Positions 37,530 through 57,085 of a stretch of 64,000 nucleotides of DNA are shown here, one piece after another. The translations under genes and the position numbers were made by a program. The stretch's first letter is position 1, and the number at the start of each line of letters is the position of its first letter. This DNA is from a bacterium. Lineage in GTDB: Bacteria > Electryoneota > RPQS01. Where the stretch lies: assembly GCA_036504735.1 (NCBI GenBank), contig DASXUQ010000005.1, forward strand, positions 403,377-467,376, written 5' to 3'. Under the pieces are notes generated by a model. The model had not been told where the DNA came from and did not search any database. It worked only from the letters and a program-made list of their open reading frames with translations.

Positions 37530-38780
37530 ATGCGATTTCCTTTTTTGAAATTGCCGCTCCCCGTCCGAGCGGCGCTTTTGTTTTTTCTCGTGACCTTTCT
37601 TGGCTCGTCGGCTCTGGCTGCTGGGCTGAAAGACCTATTTGCGGCGGCGGATACGCTGTCGCCTGCCATGACGGAAGCCCGGTTGGACCTGGCCCGGGCG
37701 CGAGCGGAGTATCAGGCAGCGCGGGGCATGCCGAATCCGAAGCTGTTTGCCAGCCGCGAGACGGTCTCTGACGGTCCGCTGGACGAGACGGAGCAGACAT
37801 TTGGAATCCAGCAATCGCTGGGTTACCTGTGGTCCTATGCTCCGAAACGCGCAGCGGCCCTGCGCACGTACGAATCCGCACTCACCGCTTATGATGAAGC
37901 CCGGCGTCAGCTCCTGGTAGAGATGACGGACCGGGCTTTGACGGCTCTGGCACTCCGGCAGCAGGTTACGTTAGTGGATACCGTGATGTTTCATGCGACG
38001 CATGCGGTGCAGTCGATGGGAGCGCGGTTCCGGCTGGGCGATGTTTCCGAGTACGATCTACACCGTTTGCAGGCAGAACTACTGCGACTGCACCAGCAGC
38101 GGCTGAGTCTGCTCGCAGAGCAGCAACAGGCCGGCAATGACTTCACCCGCCTTTCCGGGTTGCCCGAAAGCTGGCTGAGTCAATTGACCGTGCCAGAGCC
38201 AGCTTCGATTACTCTGACATCGGAAGATCAGGCGGTAGAGACGGCTCTGCAGCATCGTCCGCTACTGAAAGCGCGCGCGGCATCGCAGGCGGCCGGAGAA
38301 CAAGCTTACCGTGCCAGCAAGTGGAACCAACTGCCGGATATTGCGGTTGGCATTGGCCGCAAGACGGTCGATCCGGGCTTCCAGGGTGTCGCCCTCGAAG
38401 CCGAAATCGAGTTGCCGCTCTTTACGCAGCGGCGTTACGAACGTAACCTGGCGCGAACGGTTCGAGATGAGTCCGAGATTCAACTGCGAGCCGCGAGACT
38501 GCAAATTGAGCAGGAGGTGCGCGGCACGTACCGGCGCTGGCTGGAGCTTCGGGACAGAACACCGAGCATAGCGCCCTTCAACGCGGAGCAGGCGCGGCTG
38601 GATCTGAGTCGCGGTGTACTGATGTACCTGCACGGCGAGTTGTCTCCCGTGGAAGTGGTAGACATTCTGCGCAGCACCCTCGAATCCTTCGAGGCGTATC
38701 AGCAACTGACCAATTCGCGCCTGCTCACTGAAATTGAACTGCGCCGGGTAACCGGATTGCCTCTTTTGGAGAATCACTAA
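37530..38780 (+). CDS. TolC-family outer-membrane efflux protein (CusC/CzcC type)
   Basis: 416 residues. A signal peptide (about 1-31) precedes two TolC-type coiled-coil repeats; typical phrases are LDLARARAEYQAARGMPNPK, FRLGDVSEYDLHRLQAELLR and, in the second half, RPLLKARAASQAAGEQAYRAS and GIGRKTVDPGFQGVALEAEIELPLF is the expected beta-barrel region. It would form the outer-membrane duct of the tripartite pump whose adaptor and permease follow. ATG 37530 has GGAGGA 5-6 nt upstream. Its TAA stop at 38780 abuts the adaptor's ATG at 38781, which implies translational coupling. Confidence 0.9.
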   Translation: MRFPFLKLPLPVRAALLFFLVTFLGSSALAAGLKDLFAAADTLSPAMTEARLDLARARAEYQAARGMPNPKLFASRETVSDGPLDETEQTFGIQQSLGYLWSYAPKRAAALRTYESALTAYDEARRQLLVEMTDRALTALALRQQVTLVDTVMFHATHAVQSMGARFRLGDVSEYDLHRLQAELLRLHQQRLSLLAEQQQAGNDFTRLSGLPESWLSQLTVPEPASITLTSEDQAVETALQHRPLLKARAASQAAGEQAYRASKWNQLPDIAVGIGRKTVDPGFQGVALEAEIELPLFTQRRYERNLARTVRDESEIQLRAARLQIEQEVRGTYRRWLELRDRTPSIAPFNAEQARLDLSRGVLMYLHGELSPVEVVDILRSTLESFEAYQQLTNSRLLTEIELRRVTGLPLLENH

Positions 38781-40049
38781 ATGTTAAAGATATTACTGAT
38801 TGCCATCGTTGCGGCCGGTCTTTTCTTTGGCGGCTGCAAGCAAACATCAAAAGCCGAGCAACAGGGTGAAAGCGCTGCCGAACATGCCGCGCATGCGAAG
38901 ACGGCTGCGGTTGAAGACGCGCACGGGCACGAAGGCGAAGCCGCCGACGAGCACGAGACTCACGCAGGTGAAGCGGAAGCGAAGCACACGGAGACTGCCG
39001 GTTTGATTGTCTTTCCCGCCAAGTTGCAGCAGGAATTCGGAATTCAGACCAAGCCCGTGGAACGGCGCAAGGTTCATCAGACGATTCGGGCCATGGGCGA
39101 AATCAAACCCGCCGGCTCGCGGGAGGCTGAAGTGATTGCGCCCTTTGCAGGCATCCTGATGCCGGACATCGAGCGCGGTATCGTCCGTCCCGGTGAACGG
39201 GTTCAGAAGGGAGAGCATCTGGCGGTGCTGGCTCCTTCCACGGAAGAGTCAGGCTGGTCGCAGCTTTTAAGCGAATACCGCCTGGCCCAGGCGGAGTATG
39301 ACCGCGCTCGAGAACTTGCGAAGACGGGCGCGGTGGCGCCACGCCGCCTGCAGGAAGCCGAGCTTGCGTTCTCGCAGAAAGCGACGCGCCTGCGCGCGGC
39401 TTTGGGTGGCGTGGATCCGGCCACTTTGGACAGCATCGGCCTGACTTATCATCTGACGGCCCCGGCATCCGGCATTCTTTCCGATGTGCACTTGCGTTTC
39501 GGACAGCATGTGGATATGGGCGAGCATCTCTTCAATATCGTGGATCCGGCCCGAGTCTGGCTGGAGGTGCAGGTTCCGGTCTCCGAGACGCAGCGACTGG
39601 AGCATGTGGCCGACGCCTATTTCACGATTGGCGGCTATGCGACGATCTATCGCACGGGAGACCTGAATGGGCGCCTGATTACGGTGGGCGGACTGCTCGA
39701 CCCTATCACGCGGCGTGTGCCGGTGATCTTCGAAATGGATAATCCCAACAACATTTTCAAACCGGGAAGTTACTCTCAGGTTTACCTGCGCGAAGACGCA
39801 AATCGGGAGGTTCTGGCCGTGCCGCAGTCCGCCGTTCTGGATGAAGACGGCATTCCGGTGGTCATGCTGCAGGTCCATGAGGAGGATTTTCGCAAAGCCG
39901 TTTTGAAAACAGGAGCGCGGGACGAGGACTATGTGGAGGCGCTGTCGGGATTGCAAGAGGGAGACAGGGTCGTGGTGGAAGGCGCTTACAAGGTGAAGCT
40001 TGGGGCGCATCAGCCGGCGGCCGATGCACATGCCGGACACGGACACTAA
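38781..40049 (+). CDS. RND efflux periplasmic adaptor lipoprotein (CusB/CzcB type), His-rich
   Basis: 422 residues. Lipobox FFGGC (Cys 19) anchors it to a membrane. Residues 33-73 are His/Glu-rich (HAAHAKTAAVEDAHGHEGE) and the C-terminus ends HAGHGH, both likely metal-binding, which points to divalent or monovalent metal efflux. Between them are the adaptor parts: barrel-sandwich and lipoyl halves (EVIAPFAGIL, GERVQKGEHLAVLAPS, LTAPASGILSDVHLRFGQHV), a short alpha-hairpin (EYDRARELAKTGAVAPRRLQ), and beta-barrel plus membrane-proximal domains. It links the inner-membrane permease to the TolC-type duct. Confidence 0.92.
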   Translation: MLKILLIAIVAAGLFFGGCKQTSKAEQQGESAAEHAAHAKTAAVEDAHGHEGEAADEHETHAGEAEAKHTETAGLIVFPAKLQQEFGIQTKPVERRKVHQTIRAMGEIKPAGSREAEVIAPFAGILMPDIERGIVRPGERVQKGEHLAVLAPSTEESGWSQLLSEYRLAQAEYDRARELAKTGAVAPRRLQEAELAFSQKATRLRAALGGVDPATLDSIGLTYHLTAPASGILSDVHLRFGQHVDMGEHLFNIVDPARVWLEVQVPVSETQRLEHVADAYFTIGGYATIYRTGDLNGRLITVGGLLDPITRRVPVIFEMDNPNNIFKPGSYSQVYLREDANREVLAVPQSAVLDEDGIPVVMLQVHEEDFRKAVLKTGARDEDYVEALSGLQEGDRVVVEGAYKVKLGAHQPAADAHAGHGH

Positions 40050-40061
40050 GGAGCCCCCACC

Positions 40062-43000
40062 ATGTTTGATCGACTCATTCGGCTCTCGCTGGAGCAGCGC
40101 CTCGTTGTGCTGCTCGCAACCATCCTTGTGCTGCTGGCCGGACTGCTGGTCATGCGGCAGTTGCCGGTGGATGTGTTTCCGGATCTGAACGCGCCGCAGG
40201 TTACGATTCTGGCCGACGCGCACGGCATGGCTCCTGAAGAGATCGAGACACTGGTAACATTTCCGATTGAAACGGCGATGAACGGGGCTACCGGTGTGCG
40301 CCGCGTACGCTCTTCCATTGCACCGGGCATGGCCAGTATCTGGGTGGAATTTGAGTGGGGAACGGAAATCTTCCGGGCGCGACAGATTGTCGCCGAAAAG
40401 CTGCAGTCGGTGCTGGGTCAACTTCCTCCCGCGCTGGATCCGCCTGTGTTAGCGCCCGTCTCCTCGATTATGGGTGAGATTTTGCTGATCGGTGTGGAGA
40501 GTGATTCCCTCTCTCCTATGGAACTGCGCGCGTTCACGGACAACGTGCTGCGTCGCAGGCTGCTGGCGATACCCGGCGTGGCGAACGTGCTGCCGATTGG
40601 CGGGGAGCGCAAGCAGTATCAGGTTGTGGTGGATCCTGACCGTCTGGCAGCCTATGGGATCAGCCTGGACGAACTCGTGAATGCCGTGGAGAAGAGCACG
40701 CAGAATTCGACGGGCGGAACGTTTGTTGCCTCGGGGCAGGAATATCTGATACGCGGTGTGGGCCGGGTTCGGGACATGAGCGACCTTCGCCGTGCAGTGG
40801 TGGCCATGCGCAATGGACAGCCGGTGCTGGTGGAGCAGGTTGCCGATGTGCAGACAGGAGCCGCGCAGATTCTGGGCACGGCATCCGTCAACGCCAAACC
40901 AGCCGTCATCATGTCGGTGCAGAAGCAGCCCAATGCCAATACGCTGGACTTGACCAAGCGCATTGACCAGGCCCTGGTGGAGATGAAATCGCTGTTTCCG
41001 GCGGACGTCAAAGCCAACGCCAGTGTTTTTCGCCAGGCGGATTTCATTGAACTGGCGGTAGACAATGTTGTCGAGGCGCTGCGAGACGGGGCGATTCTCG
41101 TAACCATTATCCTCATTCTCTTTCTCGGACATCTGCGAACGACAGTGATCAGCTTGACCGCCATTCCGATCTCATTGCTGATCACGATGTTGATGATGCG
41201 GGTGCTGGGATTAACCATCAACACGATGACGCTGGGCGGCATGGCGATCGCGGTGGGTGTTCTGGTAGATGACGCGATTGTATACGTGGAAAACGTTTTC
41301 CGCCGGTTGCGACAGAACCGTCTGAAATCCGCGGAGGCGCAGCGGCCTGTATTCGACGTAATCTTTGAGGCTTCGCGGGAAATCCGGCAGCCGATGGTGG
41401 TGGCAACGGTGATCATCATCGCGGTCTTCCTGCCGTTGTTTTTCCTGAGCGGTTTGGAAGGCCGCCTGCTCAGGCCATTAGGCCTGGCGTTTGTCATTTC
41501 CGTGTTCGCGTCGCTACTCGTCGCCGTGACCATTGTCCCCGCGTTGTCCTACTGGCTGCTGCCGTCGATGAAATCCCATCGGGTCGAGCAGGAGCCGTGG
41601 CTGGTGCGTAAGCTGAAAAAGGTGTATGAGCCGACGTTAAGGTTCACGCTGAATCACACGCGATATGTGATGGCCGGTTCGGCGGTGCTGCTGGTGATTG
41701 CAGGGTTTGTGTATGCAAGCCTTGGGCACAGTTTCCTCCCCGAGTTCAACGAAGGTTCCATGCTGGTGATTGTCACCACTCCTCCCGGCACAAGCCTGAA
41801 AGAGTCTACCGACTACGGGCAGTACGCGGAGAAGTTTTTGACGAAGCATCCGGCGGTGGTCGGGGTGATCCGCCGAACGGGGCGCGGAGAACTTGACGAG
41901 CACACCTTCGGCTCGAATGTGACGGAATTGGAAGCCCGGCTCAAACGCGGCGTGGACAAGGAGGAGGTCTTCAAGGATGTGCGATCCCGCCTGTCTGTGT
42001 TGCCGGGGGTGATCATTACCGTGGGCCAGCCGCTGACACACCGCATCGACCATATGCTGAGTGGGACGCAGGCGGCGATTGCGATTAAGCTGTTCGGCGA
42101 TAACCTTTATGAACTGCGCCGGGTAGCCCAGGAGATCAAGACGGCGGTTAAGGACGTGGACGGGCTGGTGGATCTGTATGTGGAAACGCAGGTGGACATT
42201 CCGCAGCTTCGGATCGATATGGACCGCGAAGCGATGGCCATGTATGGGGTTCAGGTGGAAGATCTGGCCCATGATCTGGAGACGGCGTTCAATGGAGCGA
42301 CTGTCGGGCAGGTGCTGGAAGGCCAGTACCCGTATGACCTGACGGTGCGCTTTACGGACGCGGCGCGGGACAATTCCGGGGCAATTGGCTCGGCTCTGTT
42401 TGCCACACCCGCCGGGCATCAGGTGCCGCTGCGGGAACTGACGCGTATTGAGCGGTCCACAGGACCGAATACCATCAGCCGGGAAAATGTAAGCCGGAAG
42501 ATCGTGATCCAGGCCAATGCATCGGGCCGTGATGTGGGAAGCGTGATTGCCGACGTGAAAGCCCGCATTGACGAGCGGGTGAAGTTTCCCGAAGGCTACT
42601 TCGTGACCTACGGCGGACAGTTTGAAAGCGCACAGTCGGCCAACCGGATGATTCTGCTGTTGTCGCTGTTGTCTATCGGCGCAATCATCGTGCTGCTCTT
42701 CGTCGAATTCAAGAACTTCCGCGACGCGCTGCTGGTGATGGTGAACCTGCCGCTGGCGCTGATCGGCGGCGTAATTGCGATTCGCCTGACGGACGGCATT
42801 ATCTCCGTGGCTTCGCTGGTGGGATTCATCACCCTGTTCGGTATTGCCGCGCGAAATGGCATTCTGCTGATTTCCCATTACCATACCCTGATGGATGCGG
42901 AAGGCATGTCCGTACGGGAGGCGATTACTCGAGGCAGCCTGGAGCGGATGAACCCGATTTTGATGACCGCGCTGTGTGCCGGTCTGGCGCTACTGCCGCT

Positions 43001-43166
43001 GGCGCTGGGAGGCGGACAGCCGGGCAAGGAGATCCAGACGCCGATGGCGATTGTGATTCTGGGCGGACTTTTGACGTCTACCGCGCTGAACATGGTCGTG
43101 ATCCCGGCGCTGTACTACCGCTACGGGCACCGTCGATCCGGATCCGCGGTTCCTGCGAAAGGATAA
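40062..43166 (+). CDS. RND efflux permease (CusA/CzcA-like)
   Basis: 1034 residues, full RND length with 12 membrane helices and two large periplasmic loops. Helix 4 carries GGMAIAVGVLVDDAIVYVEN, the two Asp used in proton relay plus the Glu seen in heavy-metal pumps. Other marks: RQLPVDVFPDLNAPQVTI at helix 1, FPIETAMNGATGVRRVRS, and PLALIGGVIAIRLTDGIISV in the C-half. It uses the proton gradient to export substrates; the His-rich adaptor and CusC/CzcC-like duct favour metals over drugs, but specificity is inference. It begins 12 bp after the adaptor gene (GGAG upstream of ATG 40062) and ends at a strong terminator. Confidence 0.95.
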   Translation: MFDRLIRLSLEQRLVVLLATILVLLAGLLVMRQLPVDVFPDLNAPQVTILADAHGMAPEEIETLVTFPIETAMNGATGVRRVRSSIAPGMASIWVEFEWGTEIFRARQIVAEKLQSVLGQLPPALDPPVLAPVSSIMGEILLIGVESDSLSPMELRAFTDNVLRRRLLAIPGVANVLPIGGERKQYQVVVDPDRLAAYGISLDELVNAVEKSTQNSTGGTFVASGQEYLIRGVGRVRDMSDLRRAVVAMRNGQPVLVEQVADVQTGAAQILGTASVNAKPAVIMSVQKQPNANTLDLTKRIDQALVEMKSLFPADVKANASVFRQADFIELAVDNVVEALRDGAILVTIILILFLGHLRTTVISLTAIPISLLITMLMMRVLGLTINTMTLGGMAIAVGVLVDDAIVYVENVFRRLRQNRLKSAEAQRPVFDVIFEASREIRQPMVVATVIIIAVFLPLFFLSGLEGRLLRPLGLAFVISVFASLLVAVTIVPALSYWLLPSMKSHRVEQEPWLVRKLKKVYEPTLRFTLNHTRYVMAGSAVLLVIAGFVYASLGHSFLPEFNEGSMLVIVTTPPGTSLKESTDYGQYAEKFLTKHPAVVGVIRRTGRGELDEHTFGSNVTELEARLKRGVDKEEVFKDVRSRLSVLPGVIITVGQPLTHRIDHMLSGTQAAIAIKLFGDNLYELRRVAQEIKTAVKDVDGLVDLYVETQVDIPQLRIDMDREAMAMYGVQVEDLAHDLETAFNGATVGQVLEGQYPYDLTVRFTDAARDNSGAIGSALFATPAGHQVPLRELTRIERSTGPNTISRENVSRKIVIQANASGRDVGSVIADVKARIDERVKFPEGYFVTYGGQFESAQSANRMILLLSLLSIGAIIVLLFVEFKNFRDALLVMVNLPLALIGGVIAIRLTDGIISVASLVGFITLFGIAARNGILLISHYHTLMDAEGMSVREAITRGSLERMNPILMTALCAGLALLPLALGGGQPGKEIQTPMAIVILGGLLTSTALNMVVIPALYYRYGHRRSGSAVPAKG

Positions 43167-44621: not shown

Positions 44622-46292
44622 TTACCTCACGTCGTCCTTAACTTGCTGCAGCAGCGCCAGAACATCGAATGAGTTGGATGCCTGACGAAGGCTGCCTTGG
44701 GTCTGGCGGTTACGAAGAAACTGCATGGCTTGGCTCATCCATACAAGGTATTGCTCGGACAAGTCAGCCGGGTACAAGGCCATGAAGATGGCGTGTACCG
44801 GGCCGTTTGTCTCCGCATCGCCGACACCGGCTTTCGCCAGACCGAAGGCGACACAGACCTGACGCACCGAGTCCAGCCGGGCATGGGGAACCGCGACATC
44901 TTCATTCAGGAAAGTCGAGATCTCGGCCTCGCGGGATTCGATGGATTCCAGCGCGTGCTCCAGATTCTCTTGCGGATACCGCCGAGTCATGGCTGCGACC
45001 AGATCGGCCATGACTTCGTGCTTTGTAACAGGTTTGTCCCAAACAATGACCGATGCAAGGCTGAATGCCTTTGCTAAATCATCCTTCCGAGGTGCAGGAT
45101 ACAACGGTTTCGACACTGCGAGATTGGATGCCGCGATCCTGCCGGAGTCCATTTCCGGCAGCCGCTCATCGAGGACCACAATTCGAAAGCCACTGCCCTC
45201 GGCAATCAGCCGCTCCACACTATTTCTGAATCTGAGCAGCCGCCTCCACCACCGATCAGGTCCCGGTCTTCCGATGACAATGTGCCCCACGCGGTATTCG
45301 CGGGCAAAGCGCAACACTGTTTCCACGACGCCCGCACCCTTGAACGTGAAGACCATGGCGCCGAGTTGGTTTGCCAGTGTAAGGGTTTCGGACAGCATGC
45401 GTTGCCGGGCTGCATCAATCTTCAGCGGGTCGTCTTTCGGTGTCTGGACGTGCACGGCGTACCAGCGGCGGTTCAGCCGCCCGGCGAGGCGTGAGCCATA
45501 GCGCAGAAGATGAGCGTTGTTGGTGCCCGAGGCGCTAAGACACACTAAGATTTGATCCGGTGCCACACGGGCAGGTTCGCCCGGTGTTTCCCGGCGCTTG
45601 AAATCGATCTGCGAGGCGGCTTCGCGCAGAGTCAGTTCGCGCAATTGCTCCAGATTCAGCGGCTTAAAGTAGTTTTCGCTGGCTAAGGCAATACGCTCTG
45701 GAGGATAGATCTTGCCGCTTTGCAGCCGTTTTAGCAGGTCCGCAGGCGCGAGGTCTACGTTAACGATTTCGTCGGCCTCCTTCAGCATCGCGTCGGGCAG
45801 ACGCTCTGCGACGCGGACACTGACCATGCCCTCTACCGTGTTATACAGGCTCTCCAGATGTTGAACGTTCATGGTGCTGATGACATGGATACCAGCGGCC
45901 AGAAGGTCCTCAACGTCCTGGAACCGCTTGAGGTTCTTGCTTCCGGGAGGATTGGTGTGAGCCAGTTCGTCTACCAGAGCCACTTGCGGGTGACGCGCCA
46001 GCACGGCAGCGGTATCCATCTCCTCCAGCGTAATCCCCCGGTACTCTATCCTGCGGCGCGGGATGACCTCCAGCCCTTGCACCAAAGCCGCCGTTTCCGA
46101 CCGGGCATGAGATTCCACGAAGCCCACCGCCACATCGATGCCTTCCTGTTTGAGGCGGTGCGCTTCCTGAAGCATGAGGAAGGTCTTCCCCACTCCCGGC
46201 GCATAGCCGAGGTAGAGCTTAAGCCTTCCCTGCTCCGAGCGGCGGATCATTTGCAGGAAAGTAGACGGCATCTTGTGGGCATCCTGCGGCAT
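44622..46292 (-). CDS. KdpD N-terminal domain/universal stress protein/PTS EIIA fusion, without kinase domain
   Basis: 556 residues. Residues 15-225 are the KdpD sensor domain (Walker A APGVGKT 31-37; GFVESHARSETAALVQGLE; VALVDELAHTNPPGSKN; STMNVQHLES). Residues 246-375 are a universal-stress-protein domain (ILVCLSASGTNNAHLLRYGS, HIVIGRP), as in KdpD. Instead of membrane helices and a histidine kinase, residues 405-553 form a PTS EIIA type-2 domain with the phosphorylatable His 470 in DVAVPHARL. In E. coli, unphosphorylated PtsN (EIIA-Ntr) binds KdpD and raises kp uptake gene expression; this fusion joins both partners in one chain. Its ATG overlaps the kdpC stop by one base (TAATG). It is the last gene of the kdp operon. 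It probably gates a separate kinase or the pump itself. Confidence 0.92.
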   Translation of the reverse strand: MPQDAHKMPSTFLQMIRRSEQGRLKLYLGYAPGVGKTFLMLQEAHRLKQEGIDVAVGFVESHARSETAALVQGLEVIPRRRIEYRGITLEEMDTAAVLARHPQVALVDELAHTNPPGSKNLKRFQDVEDLLAAGIHVISTMNVQHLESLYNTVEGMVSVRVAERLPDAMLKEADEIVNVDLAPADLLKRLQSGKIYPPERIALASENYFKPLNLEQLRELTLREAASQIDFKRRETPGEPARVAPDQILVCLSASGTNNAHLLRYGSRLAGRLNRRWYAVHVQTPKDDPLKIDAARQRMLSETLTLANQLGAMVFTFKGAGVVETVLRFAREYRVGHIVIGRPGPDRWWRRLLRFRNSVERLIAEGSGFRIVVLDERLPEMDSGRIAASNLAVSKPLYPAPRKDDLAKAFSLASVIVWDKPVTKHEVMADLVAAMTRRYPQENLEHALESIESREAEISTFLNEDVAVPHARLDSVRQVCVAFGLAKAGVGDAETNGPVHAIFMALYPADLSEQYLVWMSQAMQFLRNRQTQGSLRQASNSFDVLALLQQVKDDVR

Positions 46293-46876
46293 TATGGAAT
46301 CCTGTCCAAGGCGAGGTTCACCTTCAGCACATTCACTCCGGCTTCACCGAGAATGCCCCATTGCGGGCCTTGCGTATTCTCGTAGATCAGCCGCCGGACG
46401 ACGGCCTCGTTCAGGCCGCGCGCCTGTGCCACGCGTACCGCCTGAAGCCGCGCATTGGCCACGCTGATGTGCGGATCAAGACCGCTGCCTGAGGCCGTAA
46501 CCGCATCCACGGGAATCAAAACAGATACCGGAAGATTATTCTCCGCGCGATAAGCGGCGACGCGTTCTGCAACCAGCGAGTCCAGTTTCTGCGACAGGGG
46601 TCCGAGGTTGCTCCCACCGGAATTGGCCGCATCGTAACCGTTGCCTGCAGCGGACGGACGGGAATGAAAATACCGCGAAGACGTGAACGCCTGTGCCAGT
46701 AATCCTGAACCCACAACTTGTCCGTGCGCTCCGTAGACAAGGCTGCCGTTTGCCTGACGTGGAAACAACGCCTGGGCCAGTCCCCACACGAGAAGCGGAT
46801 ACACGCCGCACAGAAGCACAGTCAGGCTGACCGTCGCCCATATCGCGACCCGCAGTTCACGCACAATGGTACTCAT
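46292..46876 (-). CDS. kdpC: Potassium-transporting ATPase subunit C
   Basis: 194 residues, usual KdpC length. One N-terminal membrane helix (VAIWATVSLTVLLCGVYPLL), then the periplasmic domain with SGLLAQAFTSSRYFHSRPSA, AANSGGSNLGP, VPVDAVTASGSGLDPHIS and ANARLQAVRVAQARGL, all diagnostic. KdpC stabilises the KdpFABC complex and raises ATP affinity. The ATG at 46876 is one base after the kdpB stop; an ATG at 46888 overlaps kdpB and is less likely. Confidence 0.96.
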   Translation of the reverse strand: MSTIVRELRVAIWATVSLTVLLCGVYPLLVWGLAQALFPRQANGSLVYGAHGQVVGSGLLAQAFTSSRYFHSRPSAAGNGYDAANSGGSNLGPLSQKLDSLVAERVAAYRAENNLPVSVLIPVDAVTASGSGLDPHISVANARLQAVRVAQARGLNEAVVRRLIYENTQGPQWGILGEAGVNVLKVNLALDRIP

Positions 46877-46877
46877 T

Positions 46878-48902
46878 TCACACCACATGCAGAGCGTTGA
46901 TAAAAAGGTCTATCAGCTTGATCCCGGCGAATGGGGCGACGACTCCACCGAAACCGTAGATGGCAAGGTTACGCCGCAGGATCACGGCTGCGCTACTCGG
47001 ACGGAAGCGAACTCCACGCAATGCCAGCGGCGTCAGAGCGATGATGATCAGGGCATTGAAGACGACGGCACTCAGGATGGCACTGTATGGGCTGGCGAGC
47101 CGCATGACATTCAGCGGGGCCATGACCGCAAAGGTGCCCATCAGCATCGCCGGGATGATGGCGAAATATTTGGCGACATCATTGGCAATGCTGAAGGTGG
47201 TCAGAGCGCCGCGGGTGATGAGGAGCTGCTTGCCTGTTTCGACAACCTCGATCAGCTTCGTGGGGTTGGAGTCGAGGTCCACCATGTTTCCGGCTTCTTT
47301 GGCCGCCTGCGTGCCGGTATTCATCGCTACACCCACGTCCGCCTGCGCAAGAGCCGGAGCATCATTGGTGCCGTCACCGGTCATGGCTACAAGGTGGCCT
47401 TTCGCCTGTTCGCGCCTGATAAGGGCCAGCTTGTCCTCGGGCGTAGCTTCGGCGAGGTAATCATCCACACCGGCTTCTTGGGCAATGGTGGCGGCGGTCA
47501 GCGGGTTGTCGCCGGTGATCATTACGGTTTTGATGCCCATGGCGCGCAGCCGGGCAAAGCGGTCGGGAAGCCCGGTCTTGACAATGTCTTTCAGGTAGAC
47601 AACGCCCATCACCTGTTGGTTGCGGGAAACCACAATCGGTGTTCCGCCCTCGCGCGCGATACGGGAGACGATTTCATCAACGGCTGCGGGATAATGGCCG
47701 TCGGACATGGCCCGAATCGAATCGGCGGCTCCCTTGCGGATGACCAGATCGGGGGCATCCACGCCGCTCATGCGGGTCTTTGCGCTGAAGGGCACAAAGG
47801 CCAGACCCGGCATATCGTGCAGGCTGCGCGCACGAAAACCGTGTTCCTTGGCAAGCACGACAATGCTTCGGCCTTCCGGCGTCTCATCGGCCAGCGAGGC
47901 AAGTTGGGCAACCTCCGCAAGGTCAGTGACGGTGACTCCCGGTGCGGGAATGAACTCCGTGGCCTCGCGATTTCCCAGAGTAATGGTTCCAGTCTTGTCG
48001 AGCAGCAGCACATCCACGTCGCCGGCCGCCTCAACCGAACGGCCGCTCACGGCGAGCACGTTCTTGCGGGAGAGGCGGTCGATACCCGCGATGCCGATGG
48101 CGCTGAGGAGTCCGCCGATAGTTGTCGGAATCAGACATACGAGGAGCGCCGTCAAAACGGTGACCGAGAACCGGATCCCGGAGTATAATCCGAACGGTTT
48201 CAGTGTTACCACTACCAGCAGAAACACCAGCGTTAATGCCGAGAGCAAGATGGTCAAGGCAAGCTCGTTTGGCGTCTTTTGCCGGCGCGCGCCTTCCACC
48301 AGTGCAATCATCCGATCCATCAGACTTTCGCCGGGGTTGGCCGCGACGGCTATGAGAATGCTGTCCGAGAGCACCGTGGTGCCACCGGTCACGGAACTGC
48401 GGTCACCGCCGGACTCGCGTACGACCGGTGCGGATTCGCCGGTAATGGCAGATTCGTTGACCATCGCCGCGCCGTCGATCACTTCGCCGTCAGCGGGAAT
48501 CACTTCGCCCGCACGAACGCGGACAATGTCTCCCTTACGGAGCAACTCCGAGGAAACTTGCTCCTCGCGGCCGCCGGAGTCCAGCCGATTGGCAACGGTC
48601 TGTGCTCGCGATTTGCGCAAGGCATCCGCCTGTGCTTTGCCGCGGCTCTCCGCGAGGGATTCGGCGAAGTTGGCAAAGAGAACCGTGAACCAGAGCCAGA
48701 GGGCAATTTGAATTGTGAACGCAACAGGCTCGCCGTCCGTCCAGCCGAGCAACGGCGCGAGCGTCGTGACCATGGCGCCGACTTCGGTGACGAACATCAC
48801 CGGGTTGCGCGCCTGCTCGCGCGGACTCAACTTGCGGAGCGCCGACCAGAACGCGGGCTTGATATACGCGTCCTTCAGAAACATGTTTGATTTTGCATTC
48901 AT
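46878..48902 (-). CDS. kdpB: Potassium-transporting ATPase subunit B (P-type ATPase)
   Basis: 674 residues. P-type ATPase motifs in order: actuator TGES (154-157, with the serine that is inhibited by phosphorylation in E. coli), phosphorylation site DKTGT with Asp 302, nucleotide-binding KGAAD, hinge [11 protein letters not shown]. Membrane segment with [15 protein letters not shown] is the KdpB-specific helix 4-5 region. It hydrolyses ATP to drive potassium through KdpA at micromolar concentrations. It starts 4 bp after the kdpA stop. Confidence 0.97.
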
Positions 48903-48906
48903 AGCG

Positions 48907-50646
48907 TCAATACAGAATAGCCGTGTGCATCATCTGGAAATGTTCCAGAACGGGACCTAATGCCAAAACAGGCAGGAATGTGAGAGCGCCGACGATCACA
49001 ACCGTACCGATCAGCAGCAGGATGAAGGTCGGCCCGGTAACCGGAAAGCTGCCGGGCCCCAAGGGTACCGATTTCCTGGCTGCCAGATTGCCCGCCAGGG
49101 CCAACACCGGAACGATGATCATAAAGCGCCCGGCCAGCATAGCCAGTCCAAGAAGCGTGTTGTACCACGGCGTGTTGGTGGCAAGTCCGGCAAAGGCGCT
49201 GCCATTGTTGCCTGTGCCCGAGGAAAACGCATACAAAATCTCGGCAAGACCGTGCGGGCCGGAGTTGTTCAGCCCAGCCACACCCCATTTTGTCATCACG
49301 GCCCAAGCGGTAAGGCCGAGTGTCGAAACCACCGGCACAAGGATGCCGATGGCTGCCAGTTTGACCTCGGAGGCTCCAATCTTCTTCCCCAGATACTCGG
49401 GGGTACGTCCAACCATCAGCCCCGCAATGAAGATTGCCAGAATAACGTAGAGCAGCATCCCGTACAGCCCGGATCCTACTCCGCCAAAAACGACTTCGCC
49501 AAGTTGGATATTGAATAGCGGCACAAGACCGCCAAGTGGCGTAAAGGAATCGTGCGTCGCGTTGACGGCACCACAGGACGCATCTGTGGTGATCGTCGCA
49601 AAGAGAGCGCTGTTGAAGATGCCGAAGCGCACCTCTTTGCCTTCCATGTTTCCCCCGGCAGGATCAATCCCTAATGCGGACAGGCGCGGGTTCCCCCCCG
49701 CCTCTGTGTGCCACGCCACGAAGACTCCTCCCAAAAACAGCAGAGCCATTGCAATCCAGACCGCCCAGCCATGCTGTTGCGATTTTACCATACGGCCTAA
49801 GTAATAGGTCAAGCCGGCGGGAATAAGGAAGATCGAGAGCATTTGCAGGAAGTTCGAGAGCGGTGTCGGATTCTCGTAGGGATGGCTGGCGTTGGCATTT
49901 GTGTAGCCTCCGCCATTGGTGCCCAGCATCTTGATAGCCACTTGCGATGCCATAGGCCCCTGCACAATCGATTGAACCGGCGCAGTGGAGCTGTCCGCCG
50001 CCGTGGTCTGTACTACGGTGGCCATCGCGTAAGGCTTGAAATTCTGAATCATACCCTGACTGACCAGCATCAGCGCGAGCATCAGGCTACCCGGCAAGAG
50101 CAGATAGAGATTAACACGTACGAGGTCAACCCAGAAATTGCCGATAGTTTTCGCCGTTGCCCGCGAGATGCCCCGTACGAGCGCTGCCGCCACGGCAATG
50201 CCCACGGCTGCCGAGAAGAAGTTGTGAGAGGCAAGCGCTACCATCTGCGAAAAGTAGGACATCACGGCTTCGCCGGCATAGCTCTGCCAATTGGTGTTGG
50301 TGGTGAAGCTGGCGGCAGTGTTGAAACTCAAATGATTGCCGACCGCAGCGAGATGCTGAGAATTCAACGGCAGCGCGTTTTGCAGCCGGAGAATTGCATA
50401 GGTAACCATCATCCCTGCCAGACTGAACATCAGCAGCGAGAGCGAATACTGTTTCCAATCCTGTTCGCTCTGCGCATCAACCCGGAAGATCCGATAGAGC
50501 AGCCGCTCAACCGGCCCGAGTACCGGCTCCAGATGGGTGCGACCGTCCGGCGTGAGCACGCGGCACAGATACGCTCCGGCCGGTTTCGTCAGAAGTGCGA
50601 GGAGCCCGACATAGAGCAGCAGTTGAATCCAACCTGATCCGTTCAT
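48907..50646 (-). CDS. kdpA: Potassium-transporting ATPase subunit A (potassium channel subunit)
   Basis: 579 residues, about ten membrane helices, a four-fold repeat channel of the SKT superfamily. Selectivity-filter neighbourhoods are recognisable: [60 protein letters not shown] and [13 protein letters not shown]. It carries potassium into the KdpB-coupled tunnel. ATG 50646 has GAAGG upstream and lies 9 bp after the kdpF stop. Confidence 0.97.
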
Positions 50647-50655
50647 AGTGCCTTC

Positions 50656-50739
50656 TTAGAATTTCTCAGGGTGAATCAGGGAATAGAGCAGGTAGATCAT
50701 CAGCCCTGCGGCGAGCAAGCCTAACAGAATGTTGGCCAT
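50656..50739 (-). CDS. kdpF: Potassium-transporting ATPase subunit F
   Basis: 27 codons plus stop, a single membrane helix (start MANILLGLLAAGLMIYLL, end HPEKF) of the size and pattern of KdpF, which sits between KdpA and KdpB as a lipid-like stabiliser. GGGAGG lies 7 nt upstream of the ATG at 50739, and the gene is placed directly before kdpA, as usual. Too short for ordinary gene finding. Confidence 0.9.
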   Translation of the reverse strand: MANILLGLLAAGLMIYLLYSLIHPEKF

Positions 50740-54176: not shown

Positions 54177-54929
54177 TCAGGCTTCATCGCTTTCGTTGTC
54201 ACGGCGGAAGCGATAGCCCATCGTGCGGACCGTTTCGATCCAATCGCCGTAGACTCCAAGCTTATTTCGCAGACGAACGATATGGACGTCTACGGACCGC
54301 AACGTCACGGACGAATTATCGCCGCGAGCAAGGTCCACCAGTTGGTCGCGGGTGAAGACCCAGCCGGGACGCCGGGCCAGCGTCACCAGAATCTTGAACT
54401 CGGTAACGGTCAGATCCACGGTGGCAGAGCTGACCCTGACTTCGTGCTGGATCGGGTAGATGACCAGGTCACGGAATTTCAGCACACTGCCAAGATCCGA
54501 GCGCGATGTCTGGCGCTTGCGAAGAATGGTCTTGATCCGTGCGGCCAGAACCCGCGCGCTGAACGGCTTAATCACATAGTCGTCCGCACCGCACTCCAAC
54601 CCTACAACAATATCCACATCTTCGCTCTTGGCGGTAATCATAATGATCGGAATATCCGCAGTCTCGGGGCTGCGCTTCAGGCGGCGGCAGACTTCGAGGC
54701 CATCTACTCCGGGAAGCATCAGGTCGAGGAGGATAACGTCTGGGGTGGACTTGCGCACGGCCTCAAGGGCCGACTCCCCGCTTTCTGCGCAGGTGACCAG
54801 GTAACCTTCCCGGGTAAGGCTGTAGCGGATGACTTCGAGAATATCATCTTCATCGTCTACCACGAGGATTTTACCTTTGCTGGGTGGCTGTTGGGGGACC
54901 GGCGAAGTTGCTGGCATAATCATGTTCAT
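54177..54929 (-). CDS. OmpR/PhoB-family response regulator
   Basis: 250 residues: a 17-residue polar leader, receiver domain (about 18-135; VVDDEDD, phospho-acceptor Asp 69 in LLDLMLPG, Thr in MITAKSE, Lys in VIKPFSARVLAARI), and a winged-helix DNA-binding domain (about 145-245; LTVTEFKILVTLARRPGWVF, SVDVHIVRLRNKLG, IETVRTMGYRF). PhoB is the closest well-known style. Two minus-strand neighbours fit a phosphate role (alkaline phosphatase upstream), yet the only sensor kinase in the window is in the kdp operon 1.5 kb downstream; either pairing is possible. Start codon lacks a Shine-Dalgarno. The gap 54930-55189 holds only the alkaline phosphatase terminator. Confidence 0.95.
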   Translation of the reverse strand: MNMIMPATSPVPQQPPSKGKILVVDDEDDILEVIRYSLTREGYLVTCAESGESALEAVRKSTPDVILLDLMLPGVDGLEVCRRLKRSPETADIPIIMITAKSEDVDIVVGLECGADDYVIKPFSARVLAARIKTILRKRQTSRSDLGSVLKFRDLVIYPIQHEVRVSSATVDLTVTEFKILVTLARRPGWVFTRDQLVDLARGDNSSVTLRSVDVHIVRLRNKLGVYGDWIETVRTMGYRFRRDNESDEA

Positions 54930-55189: not shown

Positions 55190-57085
55190 TTACTTGACGA
55201 GCAGCATCTTGCGCGCGGCTTCGAAGCCGGGGGCGGACAGTTTGTAGAAGTAGATCCCCGAAGGCAAATTGGCGGCGTCGAAGCTCAGGGTGTGGTGACC
55301 CAAGGCGAGGTTTCCATTGACAAGTGAGGCGACCTGCTGGCCAGCCGGATTGAAGACTTTCAGCGTCGCGAAGCCGGATTCGGGCAGGTCAAAGGCAATC
55401 TGCGTCGTGGGATTAAAGGGGTTCGGGAAATTCTGGTAGAGCGCGTAGCGGGAAACCACCGCCGAGCCGGTTCCGTTGACGCTTACCGTGCGGGTCCCCA
55501 AATCGTTGCGCGAGCCGTTCACGTCCACCGCGACCAGCGAGTAGCCATAGGTATTGCCCTGCTGCACGTCAAGGTCCGTCCACGAATAGCTGTGGCCGCT
55601 GGCGGAATTGCCGAGGCCGGCGACCGTAGCGACGGTTCGACCGTCACGGACGACTTCGAAATGGTCATTCTTGCTCTCGGAGGCAGTAACCCAGTTCAAC
55701 ACCACACCGTTGTCGTGCGCGGAGACTTCATACGACTGCAGTTCGACGGCGAGAACGTGGTCGTAATAGCCGAAGATCACCCGCGCAATATCGGTGTTGT
55801 CCATGTACGCTCCGCGCCGGGAATCGAAGCGCGTAGCGAGCTGCGAAAAGTACTGGCTGCCCTCGCCCTTGGCGAACAGGGGAATCACCTGATTGCTGTG
55901 GTTGCCGCTGTAGAACCACATGCCCGGCACGTGGCCCGCACCGTTATCGACCAACGTGTTGTAGGTGGTCGGAGCGCCGCTGTTGGGACCCCAGAGGTAG
56001 CCGGTCTCGTGGTCGCCGGTGACGATCAGCATGGTTTCGTTCCAGTTGCTGTTGGCTTCTACCCAGGCAATAACCGTGTTTACGGCGTTATTGAAATCGG
56101 TCTCTTCTTCAATCAGACGGCCATGTTGGTCTGCGTGATCGGCCCAGTCAATGGCTCCGCCTTCGATCATCAGAAAGAAGCCGTTGGGGTTATTGTCGAG
56201 CACGTTGATGGCGCCGCGGGACATCTCCGCGAGCGAGGGGACGTCGTTCATCGGAACCGTGAACGGCGCGACGGGATTGTTGGCGCCTTCAGCGGGGATG
56301 CGAGCCTGCTGCGTGGTTGTCGCGCACTGGAAAGTACCGCACACGCGTTCCGGCGTGGGGCCACTCTGCAGCGCCTGGAACTCGGCGCGGGTCTGGATCA
56401 GATTCCAGCCCAGAGGGTGGGTGCCGTTGACCAGTTGGTTCCACTTGGCCTGACCGCCGACAAAGCTGTAATTGTGGGCGGCGGCAGGAGTGTGGTTGTC
56501 GGTGAAGTCGGGATGGCCGGCGCCCATGATGACGTCGAGGTTGCAGCTATCGAGCATTTCGGCGGCGATCTGCGCATAGTTGTTGCGGCTGACATTGTGC
56601 GCGGCGAAGCCGGCAGGTGTGGCGTGGCTCCACTCGACGGTGGTGATGACGCCGGCGCTCTTGCCGAGCTGCTTGGCGCGCTCGGTGACGGTAAACAGGC
56701 GGTGGCGGTCAAGAGGATCCACGTTGATTTCGTTGTCGCGATTCTTGACGCCGGTGGACATGGCCGTAGCGGCAGAAGCGCTGTCGGTGGGACGGAGCAG
56801 CATGTAGTTGAAATTTGTCCATGCCTGAGCGGCGTCGTATCCCGCCGGATCGCCTTGCAGCGTGTTCCAGGAGTAGTTGCTCATGTGCACGCGGACGGGG
56901 AAGCTCTCATAGGTCTGGGCGGCACCCCAGTACAGATCGGTGGCGCGAATTTCGTTGTCGCCGCAGCCATCGGAAATCATCAGGATTACATTCTTCATGG
57001 CCTCCGCGTTCGCTGAATGGGGAGCAAGGAAAAGGCCGCCCAGCAAAACGGACAGAACAAACATCCGGAACAAATTTTTCATCAC
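55190..57085 (-). CDS. PhoA-family alkaline phosphatase with sorting domain
   Basis: 631 residues. Signal peptide (to 27), metal site MISDGCGDNE (Asp 39), nucleophile Ser 102 in TDSASAATAMSTG, EGGAIDWADHADQ and TGDHETGYLW (zinc ligands) and a late AGHVPG with zinc-binding His: a complete PhoA-type site. Residues of about 455-545 are an FN3-like domain (HDNGVVLNWVTASESKNDHF), and the last 75 form a sorting domain (NFPNPFNPTTQIAFDLPESG, ending RKMLLVK). It releases phosphate from organic esters at the cell surface. ATG 57085 (two Met in a row) follows GGAG. Neighbour to a PhoB-like regulator, though a terminator separates them. Confidence 0.95.
   Translation of the reverse strand: MMKNLFRMFVLSVLLGGLFLAPHSANAEAMKNVILMISDGCGDNEIRATDLYWGAAQTYESFPVRVHMSNYSWNTLQGDPAGYDAAQAWTNFNYMLLRPTDSASAATAMSTGVKNRDNEINVDPLDRHRLFTVTERAKQLGKSAGVITTVEWSHATPAGFAAHNVSRNNYAQIAAEMLDSCNLDVIMGAGHPDFTDNHTPAAAHNYSFVGGQAKWNQLVNGTHPLGWNLIQTRAEFQALQSGPTPERVCGTFQCATTTQQARIPAEGANNPVAPFTVPMNDVPSLAEMSRGAINVLDNNPNGFFLMIEGGAIDWADHADQHGRLIEEETDFNNAVNTVIAWVEANSNWNETMLIVTGDHETGYLWGPNSGAPTTYNTLVDNGAGHVPGMWFYSGNHSNQVIPLFAKGEGSQYFSQLATRFDSRRGAYMDNTDIARVIFGYYDHVLAVELQSYEVSAHDNGVVLNWVTASESKNDHFEVVRDGRTVATVAGLGNSASGHSYSWTDLDVQQGNTYGYSLVAVDVNGSRNDLGTRTVSVNGTGSAVVSRYALYQNFPNPFNPTTQIAFDLPESGFATLKVFNPAGQQVASLVNGNLALGHHTLSFDAANLPSGIYFYKLSAPGFEAARKMLLVK

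What the first reader, a model, noticed from the sequence alone, without database searches (positions are those of the whole stretch)
44622..46292. KdpD sensor, universal-stress and PTS EIIA domains fused in one protein without a kinase
Seen: KdpD N-domain (Walker A, residues 31-37), USP domain, then an EIIA type-2 domain with VPHAR (His 470) where KdpD would have membrane helices and kinase. Known: in E. coli EIIA-Ntr (PtsN) binds KdpD and modulates it. Inference: the fusion fixes that contact and may make potassium uptake respond to PTS phosphorylation and to KdpD-type ligands, acting on the separate kinase or directly on KdpFABC.
Basis: partly seen in the sequence, partly recalled or inferred. 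Interest (0 to 1): 0.62.

Follow-up and report, generated by a model that had tools for sequence, protein, structure and literature searches.

The report
Potassium-pump serine kinase fused to EIIA
In the operon of a bacterial potassium pump, the short KdpD protein that in other bacteria switches the pump off carries an extra sugar-phosphotransfer (EIIA) domain, which suggests that this bacterium lets its energy and sugar status, rather than the usual signal molecule, decide when the pump is shut down.

Summary
The fusion is real. It lies on the minus strand, 46292-44622, 556 aa, overlapping kdpC: KdpD domain 21-229, Usp domain about 247-375, flexible linker, EIIA type-2 domain 410-556 with His470. 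Predicted structure supports all three folds. But "without a kinase" is wrong: the KdpD N-domain is itself an atypical serine kinase that shuts KdpFABC by phosphorylating KdpB Ser162 (PMC11018627), and the required residues are present (Walker A and B, R189, KdpB TGES157; Trp39 is Phe38). Short KdpD/Usp proteins are a known class; the one tested is switched by c-di-AMP, but this genome has no c-di-AMP cyclase hit. Best reading: a KdpB-directed serine kinase whose added EIIA domain lets PTS phosphorylation gate the pump. Two further KdpD-EIIA fusions turned up, one with the same architecture (G643, KdpD part 66% identical) and one on a membrane-type KdpD lacking its histidine kinase (G323). So it is rare but recurring, with at least two origins; I found no published description. 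Control by PTS is inferred, not shown. New variant of a known kind.

The parts
44622..46292 (-). Fusion gene: KdpD serine-kinase domain, Usp domain, linker, EIIA type-2 domain (556 aa)
45606..46232 (-). KdpD N-terminal domain (PF02702), residues 21-229, atypical serine kinase fold
   Evidence: E 1e-89; 2r8r TMt 0.96
46182..46208 (-). Walker A, residues 29-37 GYAPGVGKT (G-X5-GKT)
45966..45971 (-). Walker B D108/E109, equivalent to E. coli KdpD D109/E110
   Evidence: function from PMC11018627
45255..45554 (-). Usp domain, Pfam match residues 247-346
   Evidence: sub-threshold; 7ji4 TMt 0.79
45090..45161 (-). Low-confidence, probably flexible linker, residues 378-401
   Evidence: pLDDT below 50
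44625..45065 (-). EIIA type-2 (PtsN-fold) domain, residues 410-556
   Evidence: model pLDDT 90.7, pTM 0.86; PtsN structures TMq 0.76-0.78
44931..44933 (-). Arg454 of the RExxxST motif, invariant in the EIIA alignment
44883..44885 (-). His470, predicted phosphorylation site (VPHAR)
46292..46888 (-). kdpC, overlaps the start of the fusion gene
46878..48902 (-). kdpB, 63% identical to E. coli KdpB
48432..48434 (-). KdpB Ser157 of TGES, equivalent to E. coli Ser162, predicted target of the serine kinase
48907..50646 (-). kdpA
   Evidence: position and sequence; not run through Pfam
50656..50739 (-). kdpF, 27 aa
50824..52653 (-). Separate histidine kinase (HAMP-PAS-HisKA-HATPase) of the split Kdp signalling pair
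   Evidence: related kinases lie beside 35 of 45 short KdpDs
54177..54929 (-). OmpR/PhoB-type response regulator, probable KdpE counterpart
   Evidence: role inferred from position

Best explanation
The protein is a short KdpD (KdpD domain plus Usp) that works as an atypical serine kinase: with ATP in its Walker A/B site it phosphorylates Ser157 of KdpB (E. coli Ser162) and shuts the KdpFABC pump. Its C-terminal EIIA domain, on a flexible tether, takes phosphate from PEP through EI and HPr onto His470. The phosphorylation state of EIIA (PEP/pyruvate ratio, PTS sugar flux, HprK activity) then alters the kinase or its access to KdpB, so that metabolic status gates potassium uptake at the protein level. 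It takes the place of c-di-AMP, the known input of a short KdpD, which this genome appears unable to make. Transcription is handled by the separate histidine kinase and response regulator. Shown by sequence or model: domains, catalytic residues, target serine, PTS partners, no DAC hit, recurrence. Inferred: serine kinase activity here, phosphorylation of His470, and coupling of the two. The sign of the effect is open.
For: KdpD domain with Walker A, D108/E109, R189 (= R190) and an aromatic F38 (= W39); KdpB TGES157 conserved. The isolated KdpD domain is a KdpB serine kinase, and short KdpD/Usp forms without histidine kinase are a known class, one of which is stimulated by c-di-AMP (PMC11018627). 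No DAC domain in a 98% complete genome, while 11 of 14 controls ring; the c-di-AMP motif of PMC8214093 is incomplete here (CLSASGTNN, last position N instead of Y/F). EI, HPr, HprK, EIIA-Man, IIB, IIC and IID present, and the fusion is the only EIIA_2 in the genome. EIIA model of high confidence and PtsN fold. Arg, Pro-His and RExxxSTF / PHAR kept in all three fusions although the domain is otherwise only 26-30% identical among them. Same design in G643 and a parallel one in G323. PtsN-type EIIA controlling KdpD in trans is established in four proteobacteria (PMC9239096, PMC13104625).
Against: No experiment. EIIA diverges much faster than the KdpD part between the two like fusions (30% against 66% identity), which could mean weak constraint. 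The second conserved EIIA histidine is replaced here and in G323, though it is kept in G643. The tether is predicted to be disordered, so no rigid coupling is seen. Trp39 of the adenine pair is Phe38 here. I could not test whether G323 and G643 also lack c-di-AMP cyclase. In E. coli the EIIA-KdpD link acts on the histidine kinase, not on the serine kinase.
Confidence: 0.5

Rival explanations
1. One reading: the fusion mainly controls transcription. The EIIA domain, brought by KdpD/Usp, modulates the separate histidine kinase at 52653-50824 and so the expression of kdpFABC.
For: PtsN acts on KdpD kinase output in E. coli, R. leguminosarum and S. fredii (PMC9239096, PMC13104625). A kinase of this family lies beside 35 of 45 short KdpDs, so the two chains probably work together. 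In E. coli the N-terminal region of KdpD influences kinase/phosphatase balance (cited in PMC11018627).
Against: The regions PtsN is known to touch (transmitter, GAF) are not in this chain. The kinase has no KdpD, GAF or DUF4118 domain and its relatives sit beside short KdpDs without EIIA, so the pair does not need it. It does not explain why the serine-kinase residues are kept.
Confidence: 0.2
2. The EIIA domain is an unphosphorylated structural or docking module (for example to bind HPr, KdpB or the membrane complex, or for dimerisation) with no PTS signalling.
For: Fast divergence of EIIA between like fusions; second histidine lost in two of three fusions; EIIA-like folds serve as plain regulatory domains in anion exchangers (fold matches).
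Against: The phosphorylated His, its Arg partner and the surrounding motif are the best conserved part in all three. EI and HPr are present. [quoted passage not shown]
Confidence: 0.2
3. The Usp domain with a small ligand (c-di-AMP from an unrecognised source, or another nucleotide) remains the input and EIIA only modulates it.
For: Usp fold close to the c-di-AMP-bound 7ji4; near match to the binding motif; c-di-AMP stimulates a short KdpD (PMC11018627).
Against: No DAC domain in the genome; the last motif position is Asn instead of Tyr/Phe; the fusion relative in G643 lacks the motif (GLSSRGPNS).
Confidence: 0.1

Closest known systems
Short KdpD/Usp atypical serine kinase (Deinococcus geothermalis KdpD, PMC11018627; NCBIfam NF038185 KdpD_non_kinase)
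   Same: KdpD and Usp domains in the same order, catalytic residues, place after kdpC, no histidine kinase in the chain
   Different: Has a C-terminal EIIA domain; scores 340 bits against a 550-bit NF038185 cut-off; no c-di-AMP cyclase hit in the genome
Split KdpD systems (KdpD/Usp chain plus separate histidine kinase; Alicyclobacillus acidocaldarius; short KdpDs of G285, G422 and the G065 phylum here)
   Same: Separate HAMP-PAS histidine kinase near kdpFABC and a KdpD chain without histidine kinase
   Different: Those short KdpDs end at about residue 378 of this protein, without EIIA
PtsN (EIIA-Ntr) acting on KdpD in trans (E. coli, R. leguminosarum, P. putida, S. fredii; PMC9239096, PMC13104625)
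   Same: A PtsN-fold EIIA controlling a Kdp regulator; the phosphorylated His and its Arg partner conserved
   Different: Here in cis, on a chain without transmitter or GAF; carbohydrate-type EI/HPr instead of EI-Ntr; far below the PtsN equivalog cut-off
KdpD-DUF4118-GAF-EIIA protein of G323 (L107:150-2606), found here
   Same: KdpD/Usp plus C-terminal EIIA, directly after kdpC, separate histidine kinase nearby
   Different: Keeps the membrane and GAF domains; its KdpD part belongs to the full-length group; next to a KimA-like potassium transporter

Membership tests
KdpD serine kinase (ASK), short KdpD/Usp class | KdpD domain PF02702 | tested here: met
   E 1e-89, 300 bits
KdpD serine kinase (ASK), short KdpD/Usp class | Walker A, Walker B D/E and W/R adenine pair | tested here: met
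   G29-X5-GKT37, D108/E109 and R189 present; W39 is Phe38, an aromatic also found in 12 of 67 KdpDs here
KdpD serine kinase (ASK), short KdpD/Usp class | Target serine in KdpB (TGES162) | tested here: met
   TGES157, E156 also kept
KdpD serine kinase (ASK), short KdpD/Usp class | Usp domain after the KdpD domain | tested here: met
   By fold (7ji4 TMt 0.79); Pfam score below cut-off
KdpD serine kinase (ASK), short KdpD/Usp class | c-di-AMP input: binding motif and a diadenylate cyclase in the genome | tested here: not met
   Motif lacks its last position; no DAC domain
KdpD serine kinase (ASK), short KdpD/Usp class | NCBIfam NF038185 curated cut-off | tested here: not met
   339.7 bits against 550
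KdpD serine kinase (ASK), short KdpD/Usp class | KdpB phosphorylation activity | not testable with these tools
   needs biochemistry
EIIA type 2 (PTS_EIIA_2) | PF00359 above cut-off and EIIA-Ntr fold | tested here: met
   60 bits against 27; 2a0j, 3urr, 4gqx TMq 0.75-0.78
EIIA type 2 (PTS_EIIA_2) | Phosphorylatable His and its Arg partner | tested here: met
   R454 and H470, invariant columns in 23 EIIAs
EIIA type 2 (PTS_EIIA_2) | Second conserved His (transfer to EIIB) | tested here: not met
   replaced here and in G323, kept in G643
PtsN of PTS-Ntr | PtsN equivalog cut-off and a GAF-bearing EI-Ntr | tested here: not met
   37 against 138.7 bits; EI is 600 aa without GAF
Full-length KdpD sensor histidine kinase | Four membrane helices, GAF, HisKA-HATPase | tested here: not met
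   absent from the chain

The most novel reading that the evidence does not exclude
PTS phosphorylation directly switches a KdpB-specific serine kinase, so that PEP status and sugar flux shut or spare a potassium pump after translation, as a replacement for c-di-AMP in bacteria that lack it.
Probability: 0.4. Interest if true: 0.75.

Novelty: new variant of a known kind. Interest (0 to 1): 0.55.

Why it matters
The 2024 work left open how short KdpD serine kinases are controlled where no c-di-AMP is made. Here the chain itself carries a candidate input, an EIIA domain, in a genome with EI and HPr but no detected cyclase. It would join two phosphorylation systems (PEP-driven histidine relay and ATP-driven serine kinase) in one polypeptide, and it makes the PTS-potassium link, studied mainly in proteobacteria and with conflicting signs, testable with two proteins and a pump.

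Tried and rejected
Assembly chimera: rejected, because one ORF overlaps kdpC and a like fusion exists in G643. Close relatives in genome contigs: only a full KdpD (L004) and a spurious transaldolase match (L005). Same phylum: two KdpDs without histidine kinase and without EIIA (L008, L009), other genomes no strong KdpD match. Fusion in the G285 phylum (51 genomes) and the G065 phylum (195 genomes): none seen among the loci examined; not all loci were fetched. Plasmids: 435 records with a KdpD match, none covering 80% of the query. c-di-AMP riboswitch or other Rfam family at 43-56 kb: none. Whether the three EIIA domains share one origin: trees join them, but on long branches, so undecided. Published description of a KdpD-EIIA fusion: none found in the held library.

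Full report
Observation. The ORF at 46292-44622 is on the minus strand and encodes 556 aa. Pfam finds KdpD at 21-229 and PTS_EIIA_2 at 422-550, both far above cut-off, and Usp at 247-346 just below cut-off. AlphaFold2 gives the EIIA region mean pLDDT 90.7 and pTM 0.86, and its nearest solved structures are PtsN proteins. The full-length model has pLDDT 82.5 but pTM 0.48, with a low-confidence linker at 378-401; its parts match the KdpD N-domain 2r8r, the KdpD Usp domain 7ji4 and PtsN.

Operon. Read on the minus strand: response regulator 54929-54177, HAD hydrolase 54044-53334, histidine kinase 52653-50824, kdpF 50739-50656, kdpA, kdpB, kdpC and then the fusion. The histidine kinase has HAMP, PAS, HisKA and HATPase domains and resembles the kinase found beside most short KdpDs: 35 of 45 fetched short-KdpD stretches carry a homologue that aligns beyond the kinase core. 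PMC11018627 describes such a split of serine kinase and histidine kinase onto two chains for some species.

The PTS of this genome. There is one EI (600 aa, no GAF domain) next to one HPr, IIC and IID of the Man/Sor family, and elsewhere HprK, EIIA-Man and IIB. The only EIIA type 2 in the genome is the one in the fusion. No DAC (diadenylate cyclase) domain was found, while the same search rings in 11 of 14 control genomes.

The kinase that was overlooked. PMC11018627 shows that the KdpD N-domain alone is an atypical serine kinase that phosphorylates KdpB Ser162 and inhibits the pump, that short KdpD/Usp forms without a histidine kinase are a known class, and that the D. geothermalis short form is stimulated by c-di-AMP. 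Aligned with E. coli KdpD (for its source), the window protein keeps Walker A, D108/E109 and R189; Trp39 is Phe38. KdpB keeps TGES157. The published c-di-AMP motif (A/G/C)XSXSX2N(Y/F) (PMC8214093) reads CLSASGTNN, one position short; no KdpD in my set of 67 matches it fully. The protein is thus best read as a pump-directed serine kinase whose usual second messenger is probably missing and to which an EIIA domain has been added.

How unusual it is. A domain-wide sample of 386 genomes had KdpD in 44. Scanning the fetched KdpD loci with an EIIA profile gave one more fusion, G323: KdpD-Usp-DUF4118-GAF-EIIA, 819 aa, straight after kdpC, followed by a KimA-like permease, a separate DUF4118-GAF-HisKA-HATPase kinase and a KdpE-like regulator. 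A search with the EIIA parts of these two found a third, G643: KdpD-Usp-EIIA, 567 aa, with the order kinase, regulator, permease with a Usp tail, kdpA, B, C, fusion. It is the closest relative of the window protein (KdpD part 66% identical). In the tree of KdpD parts the window and G643 proteins pair (93/75) inside a fully supported clade with short KdpDs of G285 and G422; G323 falls among the full-length and membrane-type proteins, so at least two attachments are needed. The EIIA domains of all three group together (SH-aLRT 85), but on long branches, so a single EIIA donor is possible, not shown. All three share RExxxSTF and PHAR.

Mechanism. Shown: architecture, catalytic and target residues, PTS partners, lack of a cyclase hit, recurrence. 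Inferred: kinase activity, phosphorylation of His470, and control of one by the other. The sign is open: in E. coli, R. leguminosarum and S. fredii unphosphorylated PtsN acts on KdpD, in P. putida the phosphorylated form (PMC13104625, PMC9239096), and those contacts, where mapped, use transmitter or GAF regions that this chain lacks. Against a signalling role are the fast divergence of the EIIA part (30% identity against 66%) and the lost second histidine; for it, the strict retention of the phosphorylation-site residues.

Limits. The literature library holds open-licence papers only.

Noticed in passing
window 51139-50741, minus strand: Stop-to-stop frame overlapping the end of the histidine kinase gene and ending just before kdpF (...AVIGDLFFVLLTVGFFAAMVKFADVCGRL); the hydrophobic end looks like a small membrane protein encoded before kdpF.
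   Followed up: no
L107:2642-4666: KimA-like APC potassium transporter (6s3k, E 8e-54) between the G323 KdpD-EIIA fusion and its separate kinase.
   Followed up: partly
L159:15793-17514: Permease-like protein with a C-terminal Usp domain between the response regulator and kdpA in G643.
   Followed up: partly
L102:948-2792: Amino-acid-permease-like protein (615 aa) with a C-terminal EIIA type-2 domain in a genome of the same phylum: another transport protein carrying EIIA.
   Followed up: no
L078, L079, L080: EIIA proteins with an N-terminal extension that in L080 looks like a helix-turn-helix; in L079 and L080 (same family as the window genome) next to a membrane-complex gene that looks like a hydrogenase or Complex I subunit.
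   Followed up: no
L112, L118, L120, L121: Chains of 727-781 aa with two KdpD domains in tandem.
   Followed up: no
L008, L009: Same-phylum KdpDs of 645-649 aa with a membrane/GAF-like region but no histidine kinase, directly after kdpC.
   Followed up: partly
L057:965-2939: HprK, EIIA-Man and EIIB genes adjacent in the window genome, while IIC and IID lie with HPr and EI on another contig.
   Followed up: partly
window 37530-43166, plus strand: Three-gene RND efflux operon (outer-membrane protein, HlyD-type adaptor, AcrB-type pump) beside the kdp operon.
   Followed up: no
window 55190-57085, minus strand: Alkaline phosphatase with a Por_Secre_tail (type IX secretion) signal.
   Followed up: no
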